Shown here piece after piece: positions 15,491 through 21,467 of a DNA stretch of 64,000 nucleotides. The DNA lies in the NCBI GenBank assembly GCA_003138355.1, contig PLFX01000054.1, positions 1 to 64,000 of the forward strand, written 5' to 3'. The stretch's first letter is position 1, and each line of letters begins with the position of its first letter. The notes under the pieces were generated by a model. It made no database searches, was not told the origin of the DNA, and worked only from the letters and a program-made list of their open reading frames with translations. Made by a program: the position numbers and the translations under genes. This DNA is from Solirubrobacterales bacterium (lineage in GTDB: Bacteria; Actinomycetota; Thermoleophilia; Solirubrobacterales; Solirubrobacteraceae).

Positions 15491-17182
15491 CTACGCGCCC
15501 GCGAGCTCCGCGGCCTTGACGATCAAGAGGGCAGCGGACAGGACGAGGTAGGTCCACATCGAGCCGAGTGCGATGCTGCGCGCGCGCGTCGCGCGCGGGC
15601 GTTCGAGCAGCGCGAGCGGTGGCATCGTCCACTGCGACTTGGGGATCTGCGGCTCGGTGTCAATCACTGTCACGCCCGCCGCGACACGTCGCGCGCGTGC
15701 CAGCGTCGCGCCGAAACCGAGCAGGCCGACGGCCAACACGCCCGCGCCGATCAGCGCGAAGCGGGTCACGTTGATCGTCGGAAAGACGGTCGTCGCCATC
15801 AGGATCAGAGACAGCAGAACGAGCACCGAGATGATCACGCAGGCGATCGCGTTGAGCCAGGTCGCGTTGCGCCAGGGACCGAGGACGTCGCGATCGTTGC
15901 AGAGCAGCAGCAGGAACACCGTCGCGCTCGGCAAGAGCACGCCGGCGAGCGCCTGGACCGCGGTCGTGATGATGCCTAGCGGTGCATGGGGGATCAAGAC
16001 GATCCCGGCCGCGCCGCTGATCAGCAGCCCGAAGATCAAGTAGAACCCGGGAGCTTCGCGCATGCTGCGGTGAAGCGAGCCACGCGTGCCCGTCAGGTCG
16101 CCGAAGGCATAGCTGGTGGCGAGTGTCAGAGCCGCGGCACCGATCAGCGACGCGTTCAGGAGGACGATCGCGAAGAACGCGCCCGCGGGCGAGCCGAGCG
16201 TGTGGGTGAGGCCAGCGGCCGTTGCGCCGGCGTTCTGGAAATGGCCGAAGTAGCCGGTGCCGCGGAAAGCGAACGCGCAGATCGCGATCAACGCGGCGGC
16301 GCCGACCACGACGATGAACGCGCCGAGCGTCGTGTCGAGGCGCTCGTAGTTGATCCAGCGCGGCGTGATTCGCTTGTCGATCACGTTCGACTGCTGGAAG
16401 AAGAGCTGCCAGGGGGCGACGGTCGTGCCGACGATCGCGATGATCAGCAGCACCGAGGTCGAGCTGATGCCGCCGCGGATACCGGGAACGACGAAGTCCT
16501 GCGCGATCTGGCCCGCTTGCGGATGGGCGAGGAAGAACAGCGGGACGACGAGGAAGTTCGCGAAGACGAACACGAACATCGCCCGCTCCCATGTCCTGAA
16601 GCTGCCACTGGCCGTGATAGCTACAAGCAGGACGGCGGCGATCGGGACCGAGATGTACTTGGAGACGCCGAAGAACGAGAGCGCGAAGTTGACGCCGATG
16701 AACTCTGTAACGATCGTGAGGAAGTTGAGGACGAAGAGGTCGATCACCGAGAACCAGGCCCAGAAGCGTCCGAAGCGCTCGGCGATCAGGCGCGCGTGCC
16801 CGACGCCGGTGACGGCTCCGAGGCGCACGACCATCTCCTGGTTGACGATCAGGACGGGAATCAGCAGCAGCAGAACCCACAGCAGGCTCGTTCCGTAGCT
16901 TTGGCCCGCCTGCGCGTAGGTGGAGACGCCGCCGGCATCGTTGTCGCCGACCATGACGATCAGGCCAGGGCCGATGATCGCGAGCAGTGCGACGAGACGG
17001 GCGCGGATGCTGCGACGGCCCTCGACGTCGTGCTCGCGGATCGTCCCGAACGCTCCCTGGATGTCGCCTACGTGCGCGCTGTCGAGCACGAAGCGCTCGC
17101 GCGAGGGAGCCGCGGCGGTTGGCGCGCTGGGCGTGGCCGATGCGTTGCGGGCGCGCCTCGGACGCGTCGGCCTCGTCGCCAT
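15491..17182 (-). CDS. Nramp-family divalent metal transporter, divergent (candidate Mg2+ type)
   Basis: A 563-residue Nramp-fold transporter with a 60-residue hydrophilic N-terminus and about 11 membrane helices. The helix-1 metal motif, canonically DPGN, reads D82-A-G-G85; the helix-6 motif, canonically A-T-V-M-P-H-N, reads T-T-V-A-P-W-Q (residues 253-259). The aspartate is kept but the asparagine and the metal-selective methionine are lost. Loss of that methionine is reported for Nramp-related Mg2+ transporters. The ATG follows AGGAGGTGA, the strongest ribosome site in the region. A separate small ORF precedes it on the same strand, and the next gene but one encodes an MgtE-N/CBS protein, both in keeping with Mg2+ transport. 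Confidence 0.88.
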   Translation of the reverse strand: MATRPTRPRRARNASATPSAPTAAAPSRERFVLDSAHVGDIQGAFGTIREHDVEGRRSIRARLVALLAIIGPGLIVMVGDNDAGGVSTYAQAGQSYGTSLLWVLLLLIPVLIVNQEMVVRLGAVTGVGHARLIAERFGRFWAWFSVIDLFVLNFLTIVTEFIGVNFALSFFGVSKYISVPIAAVLLVAITASGSFRTWERAMFVFVFANFLVVPLFFLAHPQAGQIAQDFVVPGIRGGISSTSVLLIIAIVGTTVAPWQLFFQQSNVIDKRITPRWINYERLDTTLGAFIVVVGAAALIAICAFAFRGTGYFGHFQNAGATAAGLTHTLGSPAGAFFAIVLLNASLIGAAALTLATSYAFGDLTGTRGSLHRSMREAPGFYLIFGLLISGAAGIVLIPHAPLGIITTAVQALAGVLLPSATVFLLLLCNDRDVLGPWRNATWLNAIACVIISVLVLLSLILMATTVFPTINVTRFALIGAGVLAVGLLGFGATLARARRVAAGVTVIDTEPQIPKSQWTMPPLALLERPRATRARSIALGSMWTYLVLSAALLIVKAAELAGA

Positions 17183-17249
17183 CTCGATTCACCTCCTTTC
17201 TGGTCCGCTGCGGCGCGCGCGGCGGCCTTCCGGAGGCCCTGTGCCCGAC

Positions 17250-17348
17250 TCAGCGGCAGGCGAGCAGGGGGACGCCGGGGCAGGCAGCCGTGCGGCCGCT
17301 ACTTCGCGGCGGTTCGCTGTCTTGCAGGGTGCCGGTTTGGTCGTCCAT
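17250..17348 (-). CDS. Leaderless 32-aa upstream ORF, candidate regulatory leader peptide
   Basis: An ATG at 17348 lies 8 nt after a TAAACT hexamer and has no ribosome site, the leaderless pattern seen elsewhere in the window. It opens a 32-codon ORF ending 67 nt before the transporter start. The peptide begins with two aspartates, has Asp-Ser-Glu-Pro-Pro at residues 10-14 and two further Pro-containing spots. Acidic/proline-rich nascent N-termini destabilise ribosomes at low Mg2+ in the MgtL leader of enterobacteria. A GGCCT/AGGCC hairpin lies between it and the transporter's ribosome site. Its regulatory role is inference. Confidence 0.4.
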   Translation of the reverse strand: MDDQTGTLQDSEPPRSSGRTAACPGVPLLACR

Positions 17349-17356
17349 ACGTCGGC

Positions 17357-17362
17357 AGTTTA
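17357..17362 (-). promoter_or_regulatory. Candidate -10 TAAACT before the leader ORF
   Basis: TAAACT on the minus strand, 8 nt before the ATG at 17348. No clear -35 box. Confidence 0.4.
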
Positions 17363-17406
17363 GACTGACCGTCGTCGAAGAAGGCAGCCCGGATGTGGCG
17401 ATCTCG

Positions 17407-17808
17407 TTACTCGCCCACGAGGCCGCGCAGCGGCGACTTGTCGCCGACCGACCAGTTGTGGCCGAACGGGTCGCGAAAGCCGCCCTGCCGGTGCGAACCC
17501 CACGGCATCTCGTGTTCAACGATCGGCGACCCGGCCTGCGCGCCGGCGGCCAGTGCCCGGGCGAGGACTACCTCGGGCTCGTCGACGAACAGCTCGACTC
17601 GCGTGCTCGTCCGGCCGACCTCCGCGGGGCTGCTCTCCGAGTCGTTCGCCGGATTGATTGCGTGGACGAAGAAGGGAGCCCCCGCGATCTGGAGGCCGGC
17701 GACACCGCCAAGGTTCCAGAGCTCGATTGCTCCGAGCGCCTCCGCGTACCACGCGATCGCACGGTCGGCGTCGGGCACGATCAGCAGTACGGAGACCTGC
17801 GCCGGCAC
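17407..17808 (-). CDS. VOC-family (glyoxalase/bleomycin-resistance-like) protein
   Basis: A 133-residue single VOC module pair. The N-terminal SVLLIVPDADRAIAWYAEALGAIELWNLGG and the C-terminal GFRDPFGHNWSV block are family hallmarks; the beta-alpha-beta-beta-beta repeats match glyoxalase I, extradiol dioxygenases and fosfomycin/bleomycin-resistance proteins. Metal ligands are only partly conserved, so the enzymatic role is open. It lies between the MgtE-like gene (15 bp upstream) and the transporter, on the same strand, and is probably co-transcribed with the former. Confidence 0.82.
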   Translation of the reverse strand: MPAQVSVLLIVPDADRAIAWYAEALGAIELWNLGGVAGLQIAGAPFFVHAINPANDSESSPAEVGRTSTRVELFVDEPEVVLARALAAGAQAGSPIVEHEMPWGSHRQGGFRDPFGHNWSVGDKSPLRGLVGE

Positions 17809-17823
17809 GGTCTCGCTGGATCC

Positions 17824-19083
17824 TTACTCGCGCGCGAGGCCGTAGCGGCGGCGCCAGTCCTCGGGCAGCATCAGCTCGAGGATGTCATCGACCGACACGA
17901 TCCCGATCGGTCGCTCGTCGGCGTCCACCACGGGCAGCGAAACGAGGTTGTAGTCGGTCATCAGTCGCGCGACCTCGGGAACTTCTGCTTCAGGGCCGAC
18001 GGAGGGCGGGCTCGAAACAGCGAGCTCGGCAAGCGGCGCCTGCGGGTTCGCTGACAGCACGATGCCCGCGCTGACGAGCCCGACCAGGCCACCTGCCTTG
18101 TCGGTCAGGAGGATCGTGTGCAGCGCCTCAGGCGGAAGGTCACGCTTGCGCGCTGCCTCGCACGCGTCGGCGGCAGTGCCCGTGATTGATACGGTCAAGA
18201 AGTCGGGGCTCATTACGCCGCCCGCCGTCGAGGGGTTGTAGCCGAGGAGCTTGCGGATCTTGCGCTGCTTCGCCGCGGGCAGCTTCTCGAGGACCGGGAT
18301 TCGCCGCTCCTGGGGGAGCTCGAGCAGTAGGTCCGCGGCGTCGTCGCTCGCCATTCGGCTGAGTACCTGCGCGACCTCGCGATCGGACCGCTCGTCGAGG
18401 AACTCGAGCTGGTGCTCGTCGTCGAGTTCCTCGAACACGTCCGCCTCGAGCTCTTTGTCCTGTCCGACGGCGGCGAGGATCTCCTCACCTTCGTCGTGGC
18501 TCGCGGCCTCGACGAGGTCGGCGATCTGTGAAGGGTGCAGGTGGGCGAGGCGTCGCGGGCGCAGCCGCAGTCTGGCTGTGGGGACGTGGCCGACGAAGGG
18601 CTCGATCTCGTCCCACGGCACGAACGACTCGCCGCCATCGCCTTCCCGGCGCAGCGCGCGCGGCAGCCTGCGGCGCAGCCGGGCGGCAAAGCTCGCATCG
18701 ATGCCGGCGACGCGCCAGACACCCTCGACGCACCGCAGCTCCACCTCCCCAGGCGTTACGAGCCGCGCGGTGTTGACGTTGATCACGCTGCGTCCAAGTA
18801 CGTCGCCGCGGAGCAGTACCTCCGTGGGCCGGCGCTCGAACTGCGCGAGGTTCACCTTGGTCGTGGACAGGTGTGCGCGGCCAGGCTCGAGTCGCTCGAT
18901 GTTGCGGATCGGCACGAACAATCTGCGGCCGCCGACCACGGCGCGCAGCCCGACCACGAGCGGGAGCGACTCGCCGTCGTCGAGTCGCGCGATCACGTCA
19001 TCGACACGGCCGAGGCGCTCGCTGGCGCTGTCGAGCAAGGGGCTGCCGACAAGCGCGGAGAGGTGGAGGACGTCGTCCGCCAT
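17824..19083 (-). CDS. PRC-barrel + MgtE-N + CBS protein, soluble, candidate Mg2+ sensor
   Basis: A 419-residue protein from the ATG at 19083 (a TTG five codons earlier lies ahead of the expected transcription start). Residues about 1-75 look like a PRC barrel. Residues about 175-285 are the helical superhelix of MgtE (LHPSQIADLVEA, VFEELDDEHQLEFLDE, ASDDAADLLLELP). GGVMSPDFLTV opens a tandem CBS pair running to about 405. In MgtE these cytosolic domains bind Mg2+ and gate the pore, but here the five-helix channel domain is missing. Its strand and position near a divergent Nramp gene suggest it senses Mg2+ or partners that transporter. Function is inferred. Confidence 0.85.
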   Translation of the reverse strand: MADDVLHLSALVGSPLLDSASERLGRVDDVIARLDDGESLPLVVGLRAVVGGRRLFVPIRNIERLEPGRAHLSTTKVNLAQFERRPTEVLLRGDVLGRSVINVNTARLVTPGEVELRCVEGVWRVAGIDASFAARLRRRLPRALRREGDGGESFVPWDEIEPFVGHVPTARLRLRPRRLAHLHPSQIADLVEAASHDEGEEILAAVGQDKELEADVFEELDDEHQLEFLDERSDREVAQVLSRMASDDAADLLLELPQERRIPVLEKLPAAKQRKIRKLLGYNPSTAGGVMSPDFLTVSITGTAADACEAARKRDLPPEALHTILLTDKAGGLVGLVSAGIVLSANPQAPLAELAVSSPPSVGPEAEVPEVARLMTDYNLVSLPVVDADERPIGIVSVDDILELMLPEDWRRRYGLARE

Positions 19084-19099
19084 CTGGATTGCCGGCAAC

Positions 19100-19105
19100 A
19101 GACTA
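19100..19105 (-). promoter_or_regulatory. Candidate -10 TAGTCT for the MgtE-like gene
   Basis: TAGTCT on the minus strand, 16 nt before the ATG at 19083, which would give a 5' leader of about 10 nt. It rules against the upstream TTG as start. Confidence 0.35.
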
Positions 19106-19192
19106 CCGTCGCGCCGCGCCGCCGGCCAGTCGGAGTGTCCAGACGCGCCGGCGATCCTCAGTTGGCGGGCTCCGGATGCCGATTAGCGAGCC

Positions 19193-19435
19193 GTGCGCTA
19201 CATAGCAATACTCGTTGCGCTGGTCGCGGTGCTGGCGCTCACGCTGCTAGGCCTTGGAGCCGGCGGCCCGTCGGCCGGCGGCGCGTCCGCGGGCCGTGGC
19301 GCCACGTCGCTATCTGGCGTGGCAGCTCAGGGGCAGGACTCGCAGGCGGGGTACGGATCGGCGATCCAGGCCGCGCAGCACGCCGTGCAGCAAGCGTCAA
19401 GCGACGCGAACAGCGCCGCTACCGCGAACCCCTAG
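19193..19435 (+). CDS. Small exported or membrane-anchored protein (80 aa)
   Basis: This starts with GTG and encodes an N-terminal hydrophobic segment (residues about 3-24, RYIAILVALVAVLALTLLGL) followed by a Gly/Ala/Ser-rich and then Gln/Ala-rich region. It could be an uncleaved signal anchor or a Sec signal peptide with an AGG-type cleavage area. No cysteine for a lipobox. It is divergent from the MgtE-like gene and followed by the PfpI gene. No function recognised. Confidence 0.5.
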   Translation: MRYIAILVALVAVLALTLLGLGAGGPSAGGASAGRGATSLSGVAAQGQDSQAGYGSAIQAAQHAVQQASSDANSAATANP

Positions 19436-19473
19436 GCGCGGGTACGGGTCGGAGAGGACCCGACCAAGATCGC

Positions 19474-19479
19474 TATCGT
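19474..19479 (+). promoter_or_regulatory. Candidate -10 TATCGT, leaderless start
   Basis: TATCGT lies 6 nt before the GTG at 19486. Confidence 0.35.
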
Positions 19480-19485
19480 CGCGGG

Positions 19486-20070
19486 GTGCGCATCGCTATC
19501 GCCCTTTTCGAGGACTGTGAGGAGCTCGACTGGGCCGGGCCTTGGGAGGTGCTTGCGTTCTGGGCGCAGAGCTTCCCGGACGACGGCGTCGAGGTCTTGA
19601 CCGTCGCCGACTCGCTCCAGCCGGTCAGATGCGCGAAGGGGCTGCGCGTCCTGCCCGACGCGAGCTGGCAGGAGCTTGGGACAATCGATGTCCTCGTCTA
19701 TCCAGGCGGCATCGGCACGCGCCGCCAGCTCGAGGACGACGCGATCCTCGAGCGTATTCGCGCCCTCGCGAGCGCTGGCGTCCTGATGACGAGCGTCTGC
19801 ACGGGATCGCTTGTGTACGCGGCCGCCGGCCTGTTGGACGGCCGGCCGGCGACGACGCACTGGAAGGCGCTCGATCTGCTCGAGGGGCTGGGGCGGGCGA
19901 TCGACGTCCAGCGCGAGGAGCGGTTCGTCGATGACGGTGAGGTGATCACCGCTGCCGGTGTCTCCGCCGGTATCGACATGGCGCTCCATCTGGTTGCGCG
20001 CCTGCACTCGCGCGAGCGCGCCGTGGAGGTTCGTCGCGGTATCCAGTACGACCCCGAGCCACCGGTCTGA
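19486..20070 (+). CDS. DJ-1/PfpI family protein (isonitrile hydratase-like)
   Basis: A 194-residue single-domain protein. I chose the GTG at 19486 because the fold starts there (RIAIALFEDCEELDWAGP) and a leaderless -10 box precedes it. The nucleophile elbow is SVCTGSLVYAAAGLLDGR followed by TTHW, the layout of the PfpI branch that includes isonitrile hydratase and the sensor halves of AraC-type regulators; the Cys in SVCTG is the expected nucleophile. The substrate cannot be told. It lies 17 bp upstream of the mnmA fusion gene. Confidence 0.85.
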   Translation: MRIAIALFEDCEELDWAGPWEVLAFWAQSFPDDGVEVLTVADSLQPVRCAKGLRVLPDASWQELGTIDVLVYPGGIGTRRQLEDDAILERIRALASAGVLMTSVCTGSLVYAAAGLLDGRPATTHWKALDLLEGLGRAIDVQREERFVDDGEVITAAGVSAGIDMALHLVARLHSRERAVEVRRGIQYDPEPPV

Positions 20071-20087: not shown

Positions 20088-21467
20088 GTGAACCTCGCCC
20101 TCCACCTCGAGCGGCCGCGCAACCGCGGGCTCATCCCGACCGACGCGTTCACAGGCGCCGCCGGCGGCGGCGCGTGCGGTGATCTGGTGCGGATCTCGCT
20201 CGGGTTCGACGGTGAGCGCATCACGGAGGTCGGCTTTGACGCATCCGGTTGCGGCGCGACGATCGCCGCGGGCAGCGCCGTGGTGGCTCTCGTGCAGCAG
20301 CGCACGCTGCTCGACGCGGCACGCCTCGGCAGCGAGGCGATCGCCCGCGAGTTGGGCGGGCTTTCGGTGGCGAAGCGTCACGCGGCCGAGCTGGCCGCCG
20401 ACGCGCTTCATCGCGCCCTCGGCCACGCGGCGCGCCGTGCCGCGCTCGCGCCGGTCGCAGGTCGGCGTGTCGTCGCCCTGAGCGGTGGCGTCGACAGCGC
20501 CGTCGCCGCGCTCCTCACGGGCTCACGCGCGATCGGGGTGACGCTCGAGCTGTGGTCGGACCCGGCCAGTGACGGCGAGAAGAGCTGCTGCTCGGCGCAA
20601 GCGGTGCGCGCCGCGCGCGATCTCGCCCATTCACTCGGCTTGCCGCACCTCTCGCTCGACCTGCGCGCGGAGTTCCGTCGCGGCGTCGTCGAGCCCTGGC
20701 TGGCCGGCCACGTGGCGGGTCTGACACCGAACCCCTGCGTTCGCTGCAACGGGGAGGTACGTCTCGACGCGATGATCGAACTCGCCGATCGTCTCGGTGC
20801 TGAAGCACTCGTCACGGGCCACTACGCCCGAGTTTCCGACGGCCTACTGCGCGTCGCCGCAGACCGCGAGAAGGACCAGAGCTACTCGCTCGCCGCGGTC
20901 TCGCCGGGATCGCTCGGGCGCCTGCGCTTCCCGCTCGGTGAGCTGCGCAAGGGTGAGACCCGCGAGCTGGCGCGCCGGCACGGTCTGCCGGTAGCCGCGA
21001 AACCCGACTCGCAGGACCTCTGCTTCCTGGCCGGTACCGGGCGCGACGCGTTCTTCGCCCGCCATGGCGCGATCGGCGCGCGCGACGGCGCGATCGTCGA
21101 CCCTCGAGGTCGCGAGCTCGGTCGGCATGAAGGCGCGCACCGCTACACCGTCGGCCAGCGCAAGGGCCTCGGGATCGGCGGAGGGCAGCCGCTGTACGTG
21201 CTGCGGACCGATGTCGACGCGAACACGATCACGGTTGGGCCGCGCGAGGCGCTCGCAACCCGCGCCGTACGCCTGCGCGACACGGTGTTGCACGGACGGA
21301 GCTTCGATCGCGTTCGCTTGCGCTACCGGCAGCCGCCGCTGCGCGCCCACCACCTGCGCGGCGATCTGCTCGAGCTCGACGAGCCCGCCTACGGCGTGGC
21401 GCCCGGCCAGCTGGCATGCTTCATGGATGGCGAGCTAGTCGTCGGCCACGCGACAGTTGACCGGTAA
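20088..21467 (+). CDS. mnmA: NifU/IscU-like domain fused to tRNA 2-thiouridylase MnmA
   Basis: A 459-residue fusion. Residues 1-118 are an IscU/NifU-N-like domain with C30-G-D32 and G-C55-G, but the third cysteine of the LHCS position is alanine (H98-A99). From about 125 it is MnmA, which thiolates U34 of tRNAs for Lys, Glu and Gln: the PP-loop is LSGGVDSAVA (131-140), the catalytic cysteines are C217 in NPCVRCN and C312 in QDLCF, and GHYAR, KDQSYSL and the C-terminal beta barrel are in place. MnmA alone is about 360 residues. The fusion suggests direct sulfur or Fe-S hand-over. GTG start. Confidence 0.92.
   Translation: MNLALHLERPRNRGLIPTDAFTGAAGGGACGDLVRISLGFDGERITEVGFDASGCGATIAAGSAVVALVQQRTLLDAARLGSEAIARELGGLSVAKRHAAELAADALHRALGHAARRAALAPVAGRRVVALSGGVDSAVAALLTGSRAIGVTLELWSDPASDGEKSCCSAQAVRAARDLAHSLGLPHLSLDLRAEFRRGVVEPWLAGHVAGLTPNPCVRCNGEVRLDAMIELADRLGAEALVTGHYARVSDGLLRVAADREKDQSYSLAAVSPGSLGRLRFPLGELRKGETRELARRHGLPVAAKPDSQDLCFLAGTGRDAFFARHGAIGARDGAIVDPRGRELGRHEGAHRYTVGQRKGLGIGGGQPLYVLRTDVDANTITVGPREALATRAVRLRDTVLHGRSFDRVRLRYRQPPLRAHHLRGDLLELDEPAYGVAPGQLACFMDGELVVGHATVDR

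What the first reader, a model, noticed from the sequence alone, without database searches (positions are those of the whole stretch)
15491..17182. Nramp-fold transporter with both metal motifs changed: likely Mg2+ rather than Mn/Fe
Seen: helix-1 DPGN reads DAGG and helix-6 A-T-V-M-P-H-N reads T-T-V-A-P-W-Q, so the asparagine and the soft-metal-selecting methionine are gone while the aspartate remains. Known: canonical Nramp proteins use that methionine to favour Mn2+ and Fe2+, and Nramp-related magnesium transporters lack it. Inferred: this gene encodes a Mg2+ transporter and would be misannotated as a manganese transporter by homology.
Basis: partly seen in the sequence, partly recalled or inferred. 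Interest (0 to 1): 0.66.

Follow-up and report, generated by a model that had tools for sequence, protein, structure and literature searches.

The report
Nramp-type magnesium importer with sensor partner
This gene looks like a manganese transporter but belongs to a little-studied, enlarged branch of Nramp-type magnesium importers, next to a gene for a likely magnesium sensor, and it may be this bacterium's main way of taking up magnesium.

Summary
Confirmed: a 563-aa Nramp-fold gene at 15491-17182(-) with D82-A-G-G85 in helix 1 and T253-T-V-A256-P-W258 in helix 6. This is the published NRMT signature DxxG-TxxA, identical at these sites to EleNRMT, a proven Mg2+ (and Mn2+) transporter and the best PDB hit (1e-58). 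Trees separate it from MntH (100/100), but it sits in its own subfamily, not beside EleNRMT. That subfamily adds two C-terminal helices and an N-terminal motif.

Evidence for Mg2+ beyond the motif: (1) 11 of 96 subfamily loci carry an M-box Mg2+ riboswitch, 8 directly before the transporter; the window has none. (2) 66 of 80 loci carry a PRC/MgtE_N/CBS gene beside it, with most MgtE Mg2+-sensing acids kept; the window's is 17824-19098(-). (3) The host genome (93.7% complete) shows no CorA, MgtE or MgtA. Across 398 Actinomycetota genomes, 48 of 132 with an NRMT lack both CorA and MgtE, against 15 of 266 without one.

Caveats: one published NrmT with the same kind of neighbour rescued Mn2+ fully and Mg2+ only weakly; EleNRMT also carries Mn2+; no transport test was possible. 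NRMTs, their MgtE-like neighbour and M-box control were known since 2014. New here: the extended subfamily, its riboswitches, the replacement pattern.

The parts
15491..17182 (-). NRMT-type Nramp transporter, 563 aa, long subfamily
   Evidence: ORF; Pfam Nramp 2.8e-78; best PDB hit EleNRMT 7qia 1.1e-58; AF2 model pLDDT 83, pTM 0.83
16928..16942 (-). helix-1 metal motif N81-D-A-G-G85
   Evidence: sequence; column alignment to EleNRMT D-A-G-G and MntH D-P-G-N
16409..16426 (-). helix-6 metal motif T253-T-V-A256-P-W258
   Evidence: sequence; aligned to EleNRMT T-T-I-A-P-W and MntH A-T-V/I-M-P-H
17009..17089 (-). conserved N-terminal motif of the long subfamily, residues 32-58 (VLDSAHxGDIxGAFGTIR); predicted short hairpin 41-48
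   Evidence: conservation over 97 rows; invariant I41 G43 A44 G46 in 29 rows; model
15494..15775 (-). C-terminal extension, residues 470-563: two extra predicted membrane helices 472-502 and 533-562 with a conserved loop (W518, P521, L526)
   Evidence: model, hydropathy, conservation; EleNRMT has 11 helices
17407..17808 (-). VOC/glyoxalase-like gene between partner and transporter; not found in the 80 related loci, so probably an insertion unrelated to function
   Evidence: Pfam Glyoxalase 3.5e-7; no tblastn hit at 1e-5 in 80 loci
17824..19098 (-). soluble PRC-barrel + MgtE_N + CBS-pair protein, 424 aa: likely Mg2+ sensor/regulator of the transporter
   Evidence: Pfam PRC, MgtE_N, CBS; MgtE cytosolic domain 8gpv 3e-23 and by fold 2.8e-20; conserved acidic sites; no membrane helix seen in the model

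Best explanation
The gene encodes an Nramp-related Mg2+ transporter (NRMT type) that lets partly hydrated Mg2+ into the cell down its electrochemical gradient, without proton coupling. Asp82, the Thr253 hydroxyl/backbone and Glu160 line a pocket widened by loss of Asn, Met and His (binding-site changes shown by sequence; mechanism inferred from EleNRMT). Its neighbour, a stand-alone copy of the MgtE cytosolic Mg2+ sensor with a PRC-barrel domain, most likely reports cytosolic Mg2+ to the transporter (inferred). In this organism it is probably the main Mg2+ uptake route, since CorA, MgtE and MgtA were not found. It may also carry some Mn2+.
For: Binding site identical to EleNRMT at D/G/T/A/W and Glu160 kept; proton-path residues lost: Dra E124 to F150, D131 to I157, R353 to E376, H237 to Q263. 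All four Mg2+-selectivity positions found in a DraNramp screen (Y54, M230, H232, L381; PMC13060092, passages) are changed: D80, A256, W258, A413; N275, whose Ala change helped Y54D import Mg2+ there, is A295. Best PDB hit EleNRMT 1.1e-58, next 4.4e-18. M-box Mg2+ riboswitch in 11 of 96 subfamily loci at 107-176 bits, 8 directly upstream of the transporter, 3 further upstream, ahead of its partner. Partner gene in 66 of 80 loci; sites equivalent to MgtE D91, D95, D247 kept in 67 of 67 and E59 as D in 66 of 67. Own genome: CorA 0, MgtE 0; no MgtA over cut-off, and the four P-type ATPase stretches scanned, of six matches, score best as Ca2+ or H+ types. Class: 11 of 29 genomes with the pair lack CorA and MgtE, 0 of 91 without; phylum: 48 of 132 against 15 of 266.
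Against: No M-box in the window nor in the 12 loci, which include its nearest relatives. The window's subfamily does not group with EleNRMT: it joins paralog L004 (95/87), which sits beside a DtxR-type regulator, though the tree with all NRMTs together is not rejected (p-AU 0.126). 84 of 132 NRMT genomes keep CorA or MgtE; three class genomes (G095, G098, G101) with this subfamily keep CorA. Residue 226 of the MgtE sensor is Asn, not Asp, in 66 of 67 partners.
Confidence: 0.82

Rival explanations
1. A Mn2+ importer that has lost the methionine but still serves manganese in the cell, as proposed for the A. capsulatum NrmT-group protein; the MgtE-like neighbour would then sense Mn2+.
For: A. capsulatum result (PMC4072509 section 11); EleNRMT carries Mn2+ with Km near 120 uM; binding-site mutants of EcoDMT still carry Mn2+; no M-box here; nearest paralog L004 lies beside a DtxR-type metal repressor.
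Against: M-boxes before 11 of 96 members of this very subfamily, the criterion the 2014 authors themselves proposed for Mg2+ specificity; loss of CorA and MgtE where NRMT is present; the genome holds three other Nramp-related genes that could serve Mn/Fe.
Confidence: 0.1
2. A broad divalent-metal facilitator that carries Mg2+ and Mn2+ (perhaps Co2+) at similar rates, with selectivity set by what is abundant outside rather than by the site.
For: EleNRMT binds Mn2+ (Kd near 100 uM) more tightly than Mg2+ (near 400 uM) and carries both.
Against: This and the best explanation differ in degree only; M-box control of relatives names Mg2+ as the regulated ion.
Confidence: 0.06
3. A canonical Mn2+/Fe2+:H+ Nramp with harmless motif drift.
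For: Pfam and fold are Nramp.
Against: Separated from MntH, DraNramp and BfraNramp at 100/100; every motif site conserved in its changed state across 98 rows; MntH model far below its cut-off.
Confidence: 0.02

Closest known systems
EleNRMT of Eggerthella lenta (PDB 7qia/7qji; PMC8806188)
   Same: same fold (Foldseek 2.3e-17, TMt 0.88); same five binding-site residues and Glu on helix 3; 33% identity
   Different: separate clade; 11 helices against 13 predicted here; position Dra-54 is Gly there, Asp here; Dra-381 Asn there, Ala here
NrmT Ca_c0685 / Ca_c3329 of Clostridium acetobutylicum (PMC4072509)
   Same: Nramp-related, MgtE-like neighbour gene, M-box control as in some members of this subfamily
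   Different: sequence not available here, so not placed in the tree; this window has no M-box
A. capsulatum NrmT-group protein Acp2977 with MgtE-like Acp2976 (PMC4072509)
   Same: transporter downstream of an MgtE-like gene, no M-box
   Different: reported to act mainly on Mn2+; sequence not compared here
MgtE cytosolic domain (PDB 2yvy, 8gpv)
   Same: the partner gene's MgtE_N and CBS pair and most Mg2+-site acids
   Different: no transport domain; PRC-barrel in front; Asp226 is Asn

Membership tests
NRMT (Nramp-related Mg2+ transporters) | binding-site signature DxxG in helix 1 and TxxA/T in helix 6 (PMC8806188 section 5) | tested here: met
   D82..G85 and T253..A256
NRMT (Nramp-related Mg2+ transporters) | outside the canonical Mn/Fe Nramp clade | tested here: met
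   100/100 split from E. coli MntH, DraNramp, BfraNramp and from the first two
NRMT (Nramp-related Mg2+ transporters) | one clade with characterised EleNRMT, excluding other Nramp-related groups | tested here: inconclusive
   free tree puts the subfamily with paralog L004 (95/87); NRMT-only clade not rejected, p-AU 0.126; L002 and L003 long-branched
NRMT (Nramp-related Mg2+ transporters) | loss of the proton-coupling residues except Asp on helix 1 and Glu on helix 3 | tested here: met
   F150, I157, E376, W258, Q263 replace E124, D131, R353, H232, H237; Arg375 is still present at R352 but variable in the subfamily
NRMT (Nramp-related Mg2+ transporters) | MgtE N-domain-like gene beside it (most members, PMC4072509) | tested here: met
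   17824-19098(-), one VOC gene between; 66 of 80 related loci
NRMT (Nramp-related Mg2+ transporters) | M-box riboswitch (a feature of a subset of members, not required of all) | tested here: not met
   none in the window; present in 11 of 96 subfamily loci
NRMT (Nramp-related Mg2+ transporters) | Mg2+ transport without proton coupling | not testable with these tools
   needs transport assays
Canonical Mn/Fe Nramp (MntH) | DPGN on helix 1 and A-x-x-M-P-H on helix 6 | tested here: not met
   DAGG and TTVAPW
MgtE Mg2+ channel (for the partner gene) | MgtE transport domain PF01769 | tested here: not met
   no such domain in the protein or in the genome; only the cytosolic sensor part is present

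The most novel reading that the evidence does not exclude
The long NRMT subfamily and its PRC-MgtE_N-CBS partner form a two-part, Mg2+-gated uptake system: the MgtE sensor has been uncoupled from its channel and gates an unrelated LeuT-fold carrier, perhaps through the subfamily's own N-terminal hairpin and C-terminal cytoplasmic loop. In this bacterium and many other Actinomycetota it has replaced CorA, MgtE and MgtA as the only Mg2+ import route.
Probability: 0.4. Interest if true: 0.66.

Novelty: new variant of a known kind. Interest (0 to 1): 0.42.

Why it matters
NRMTs were proposed in 2014 as a fourth class of bacterial Mg2+ transporter, yet only a handful have been tested, and a 2026 preprint calls the Nramp-related groups other than the NRMT-like group and the one holding hypothesised MntG entirely uncharacterised (passages of PMC12873925). 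The M-boxes found here give an independent reading of the substrate for a large, extended subfamily found in Mycobacterium, Streptomyces, Alicyclobacillus and other genomes. The co-occurrence result makes a sharp prediction: in genomes without CorA and MgtE this gene should be essential at low Mg2+. A 2026 paper names a class of mycobacterial M-boxes 'Mn2+-type' because genes called manganese transporters lie downstream (section 5 of PMC12810186); I suspect, without having checked those genes, that some are this subfamily and really Mg2+ importers.

Tried and rejected
Canonical MntH with drifted motif: rejected by trees and by conservation of every changed site.

M-box or other known riboswitch in the window: none at gathering threshold, in a permissive search of 17000-19700 (two chance-level hits to eukaryotic families), or with a model built from the subfamily's own M-boxes. 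The window's 5' leader matches only two near relatives by BLAST, L037 and L104, among 11 leaders compared with it; no structure was inferred.

MgtA as another Mg2+ importer: six stretches of P-type ATPases matched the MgtA model, all below its cut-off; of the four I scanned, one scores best as a Ca2+ pump and three as H+ pumps; the two weakest were not scanned.

Fold comparison as a discriminator: Foldseek ranks EleNRMT first (2.3e-17 against 4.1e-12 for the best other protein), but VIA-align Z is tied with human NRAMP1 and nearly so with DMT1 (37.3 against 36.3 and 36.2), so the fold alone does not settle the group.

The Fisher tests ignore shared ancestry; the 48 genomes fall in 13 family codes of the 27 that hold an NRMT. 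The 1e-100 cut for 'NRMT' was chosen after seeing a gap in the scores (1e-111 to 1e-89). MgtA was not searched beyond the own genome. Pairs in the class set were matched by eye from the coordinates.

A first motif count by pattern matching was unsound (it caught N-terminal stretches) and was replaced by the alignment columns.

Full report
WHAT IS THERE. The ORF 15491-17182(-) encodes 563 aa and is Pfam Nramp. Beyond its 3' end, on the other strand, is a DUF4760 gene. Upstream on the same strand lie a small VOC-like gene (17407-17808) and a 424-aa protein (17824-19098) with PRC-barrel, MgtE_N and CBS domains.

WHAT IT MATCHES. The best solved relative is EleNRMT (1.1e-58, 202 bits); BfraNramp is next at 4.4e-18 and DraNramp at about 1e-16. 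The eLife 2022 paper on EleNRMT (PMC8806188; outline and sections 5, 7, 9, 11, 15 read) defines NRMTs by DxxG-TxxA/T. The window has D82, G85, T253, A256, W258 and E160, the same as EleNRMT, where canonical proteins have D, N, A, M, H and E. Of the proton-path residues, E124, D131, R353 and H237 of DraNramp are replaced by F150, I157, E376 and Q263; R352 is still Arg375. A 2026 preprint (PMC13060092, passages) reports four positions in DraNramp that decide Mg2+ import, Y54, M230, H232 and L381, and that Y54D with N275A imports Mg2+; the window has D80, A256, W258, A413 and A295 there. EleNRMT has Gly and Asn at the first and last of the four, so the two proteins may reach the same end by partly different residues.

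WHERE IT SITS. In a 65-row tree the window lies in a 30-row subfamily (100/99) apart from EleNRMT's 12-row clade, and canonical MntH is split off at 100/100. In a 38-row tree without the longest branches the subfamily (99/99) joins own-genome paralog L004 and L104b at 95/87, but a tree with all NRMT-type rows together is not rejected, p-AU 0.126. Clade membership alone therefore does not prove Mg2+: the wider group also holds L004 (D-S-A-T-W, beside a DtxR-type regulator) and L003 (D-S-A-M-W). Most members of the subfamily are about 530-580 aa long, with a conserved N-terminal motif and two extra C-terminal helices; EleNRMT is described with 11 helices.

RIBOSWITCHES. Rfam's M-box (RF00380) was found in 7 of 12 loci searched, 0 of 12 and 3 of 20. 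A model built from eight of them finds 11 in 96 subfamily loci at 107-176 bits and none in the window at E up to 1 (eight of the 11 were used to build the model; loci L007-L012 and L137-L151 hold only about 1.5 kb of flank, and some may repeat a locus of the other set). All 11 are on the transporter's strand: 8 lie directly before the transporter (three Alicyclobacillus, Mycobacterium kyorinense, L064, L099, L106, L137) and 3 lie ahead of the partner gene (in L056 a 463-aa ORF without Pfam match lies between). In the 50 further sources, 10 show one at E below 1e-6, nine of them cut off at the 5' end of the locus; L019 and L127 are the same place, so 9 distinct loci, mostly of the TTxT type. 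The 2014 paper (PMC4072509; sections 11, 12 and passages) treats the M-box as a predictor of Mg2+ specificity.

THE PARTNER. Of 80 loci, 63 have the partner upstream and 3 downstream on the same strand; 14 have none, of which 5 have under 600 bases upstream. The Mg2+ sites of Thermus MgtE named in PMC5882242 (passages) are kept as D91 67/67, D95 67/67, D247 67/67, E59 as D 66/67, D250 as D or E 61/67, while D226 is Asn in 66/67. Its model (pLDDT 84, pTM 0.62) shows no bundle of membrane helices and matches MgtE cytosolic structures. The 2014 authors already speculated that such a fragment gives feedback control, and found no further improvement of Mg2+ rescue when the A. capsulatum one was co-expressed.

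GENOME CONTEXT. The own genome (2.76 Mb, 93.66% complete) has four Nramp-family genes, none with the canonical motif, one MgtE_N match, the window's, and no CorA or MgtE transport domain. P-type ATPase stretches, four of six scanned, score best as Ca2+ or H+ pumps. In 120 class genomes, 11 of the 29 with an NRMT and MgtE_N gene near each other lack CorA and MgtE against 0 of 91 others (Fisher 3e-8). In 398 Actinomycetota genomes, 48 of 132 with an NRMT (profile E 1e-100 or better) lack both, against 15 of 266 without (2e-14); the 48 fall in 13 family codes. These tests ignore shared ancestry and MgtA was not searched there. 84 of 132 keep CorA or MgtE, so replacement is common, not universal.

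HOW IT MOST LIKELY WORKS. Shown by sequence: binding-site and proton-path changes, partner gene, absence of other known importers in the assembly. Inferred from EleNRMT: Mg2+ enters with most of its water shell, driven by membrane potential, not coupled to protons. Inferred from MgtE: the partner senses cytosolic Mg2+ and reduces uptake. Not shown: transport, contact between the two proteins, regulation in this host, where no riboswitch was seen.

NOVELTY. NRMTs, the MgtE-like neighbour and M-box control were published in 2014, and the structure in 2022. I saw no description of the extended subfamily, of M-boxes before it, or of the CorA/MgtE replacement pattern in the listings or in the passages read of PMC9606685 and PMC10606218; the library lacks most subscription papers and I read no supplements. 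The nearest statement is the 'Mn2+-type' M-box class of mycobacteria in PMC12810186 (section 5 and passages).

Noticed in passing
own genome, L004:1399-2787(-) and L004:2784-3470(-): A second Nramp-related gene (D-G-P-S in helix 1, A-T-V-T-P-W in helix 6) overlaps by four bases a DtxR/IdeR-type regulator with FeoA domain, suggesting Mn or Fe control of a non-canonical Nramp.
   Followed up: partly
own genome, L003:943-2628(+): A third Nramp-related gene keeps the helix-6 methionine (A-V-V-M-P-W) but has lost Asn and His (D-A-G-S); an HTH regulator gene lies upstream.
   Followed up: no
own genome, L002:1333-2712(+): A fourth Nramp-related gene reads D-P-S-G / T-T-I-S-P-Y, on a very long branch; the genome shows no canonical MntH.
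   Followed up: no
window 20088-21467(+): One ORF joins a NifU-like N-terminal domain to a MnmA-type tRNA thiouridylase, which looks like an unusual fusion.
   Followed up: no
L104:3-1301(-): In a Solirubrobacterales contig a gene of the L004 type lies divergently next to the sensor gene and the NRMT.
   Followed up: no
L033:2837-2900(+): A fluoride riboswitch follows an NRMT of the TTxT type.
   Followed up: no
L056:2107-3498(+): A 463-aa ORF without Pfam match lies between the M-box and the sensor gene in Mycolicibacterium rhodesiae.
   Followed up: no
plasmid records such as NZ_CP092103.1, CP071185.1, NZ_CP080529.1: Relatives of the window protein, about 53-63% identical in the rows listed, lie on plasmids of Rhodococcus, Alicyclobacillus, Mesorhizobium, Burkholderia and others, so it may spread horizontally.
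   Followed up: no
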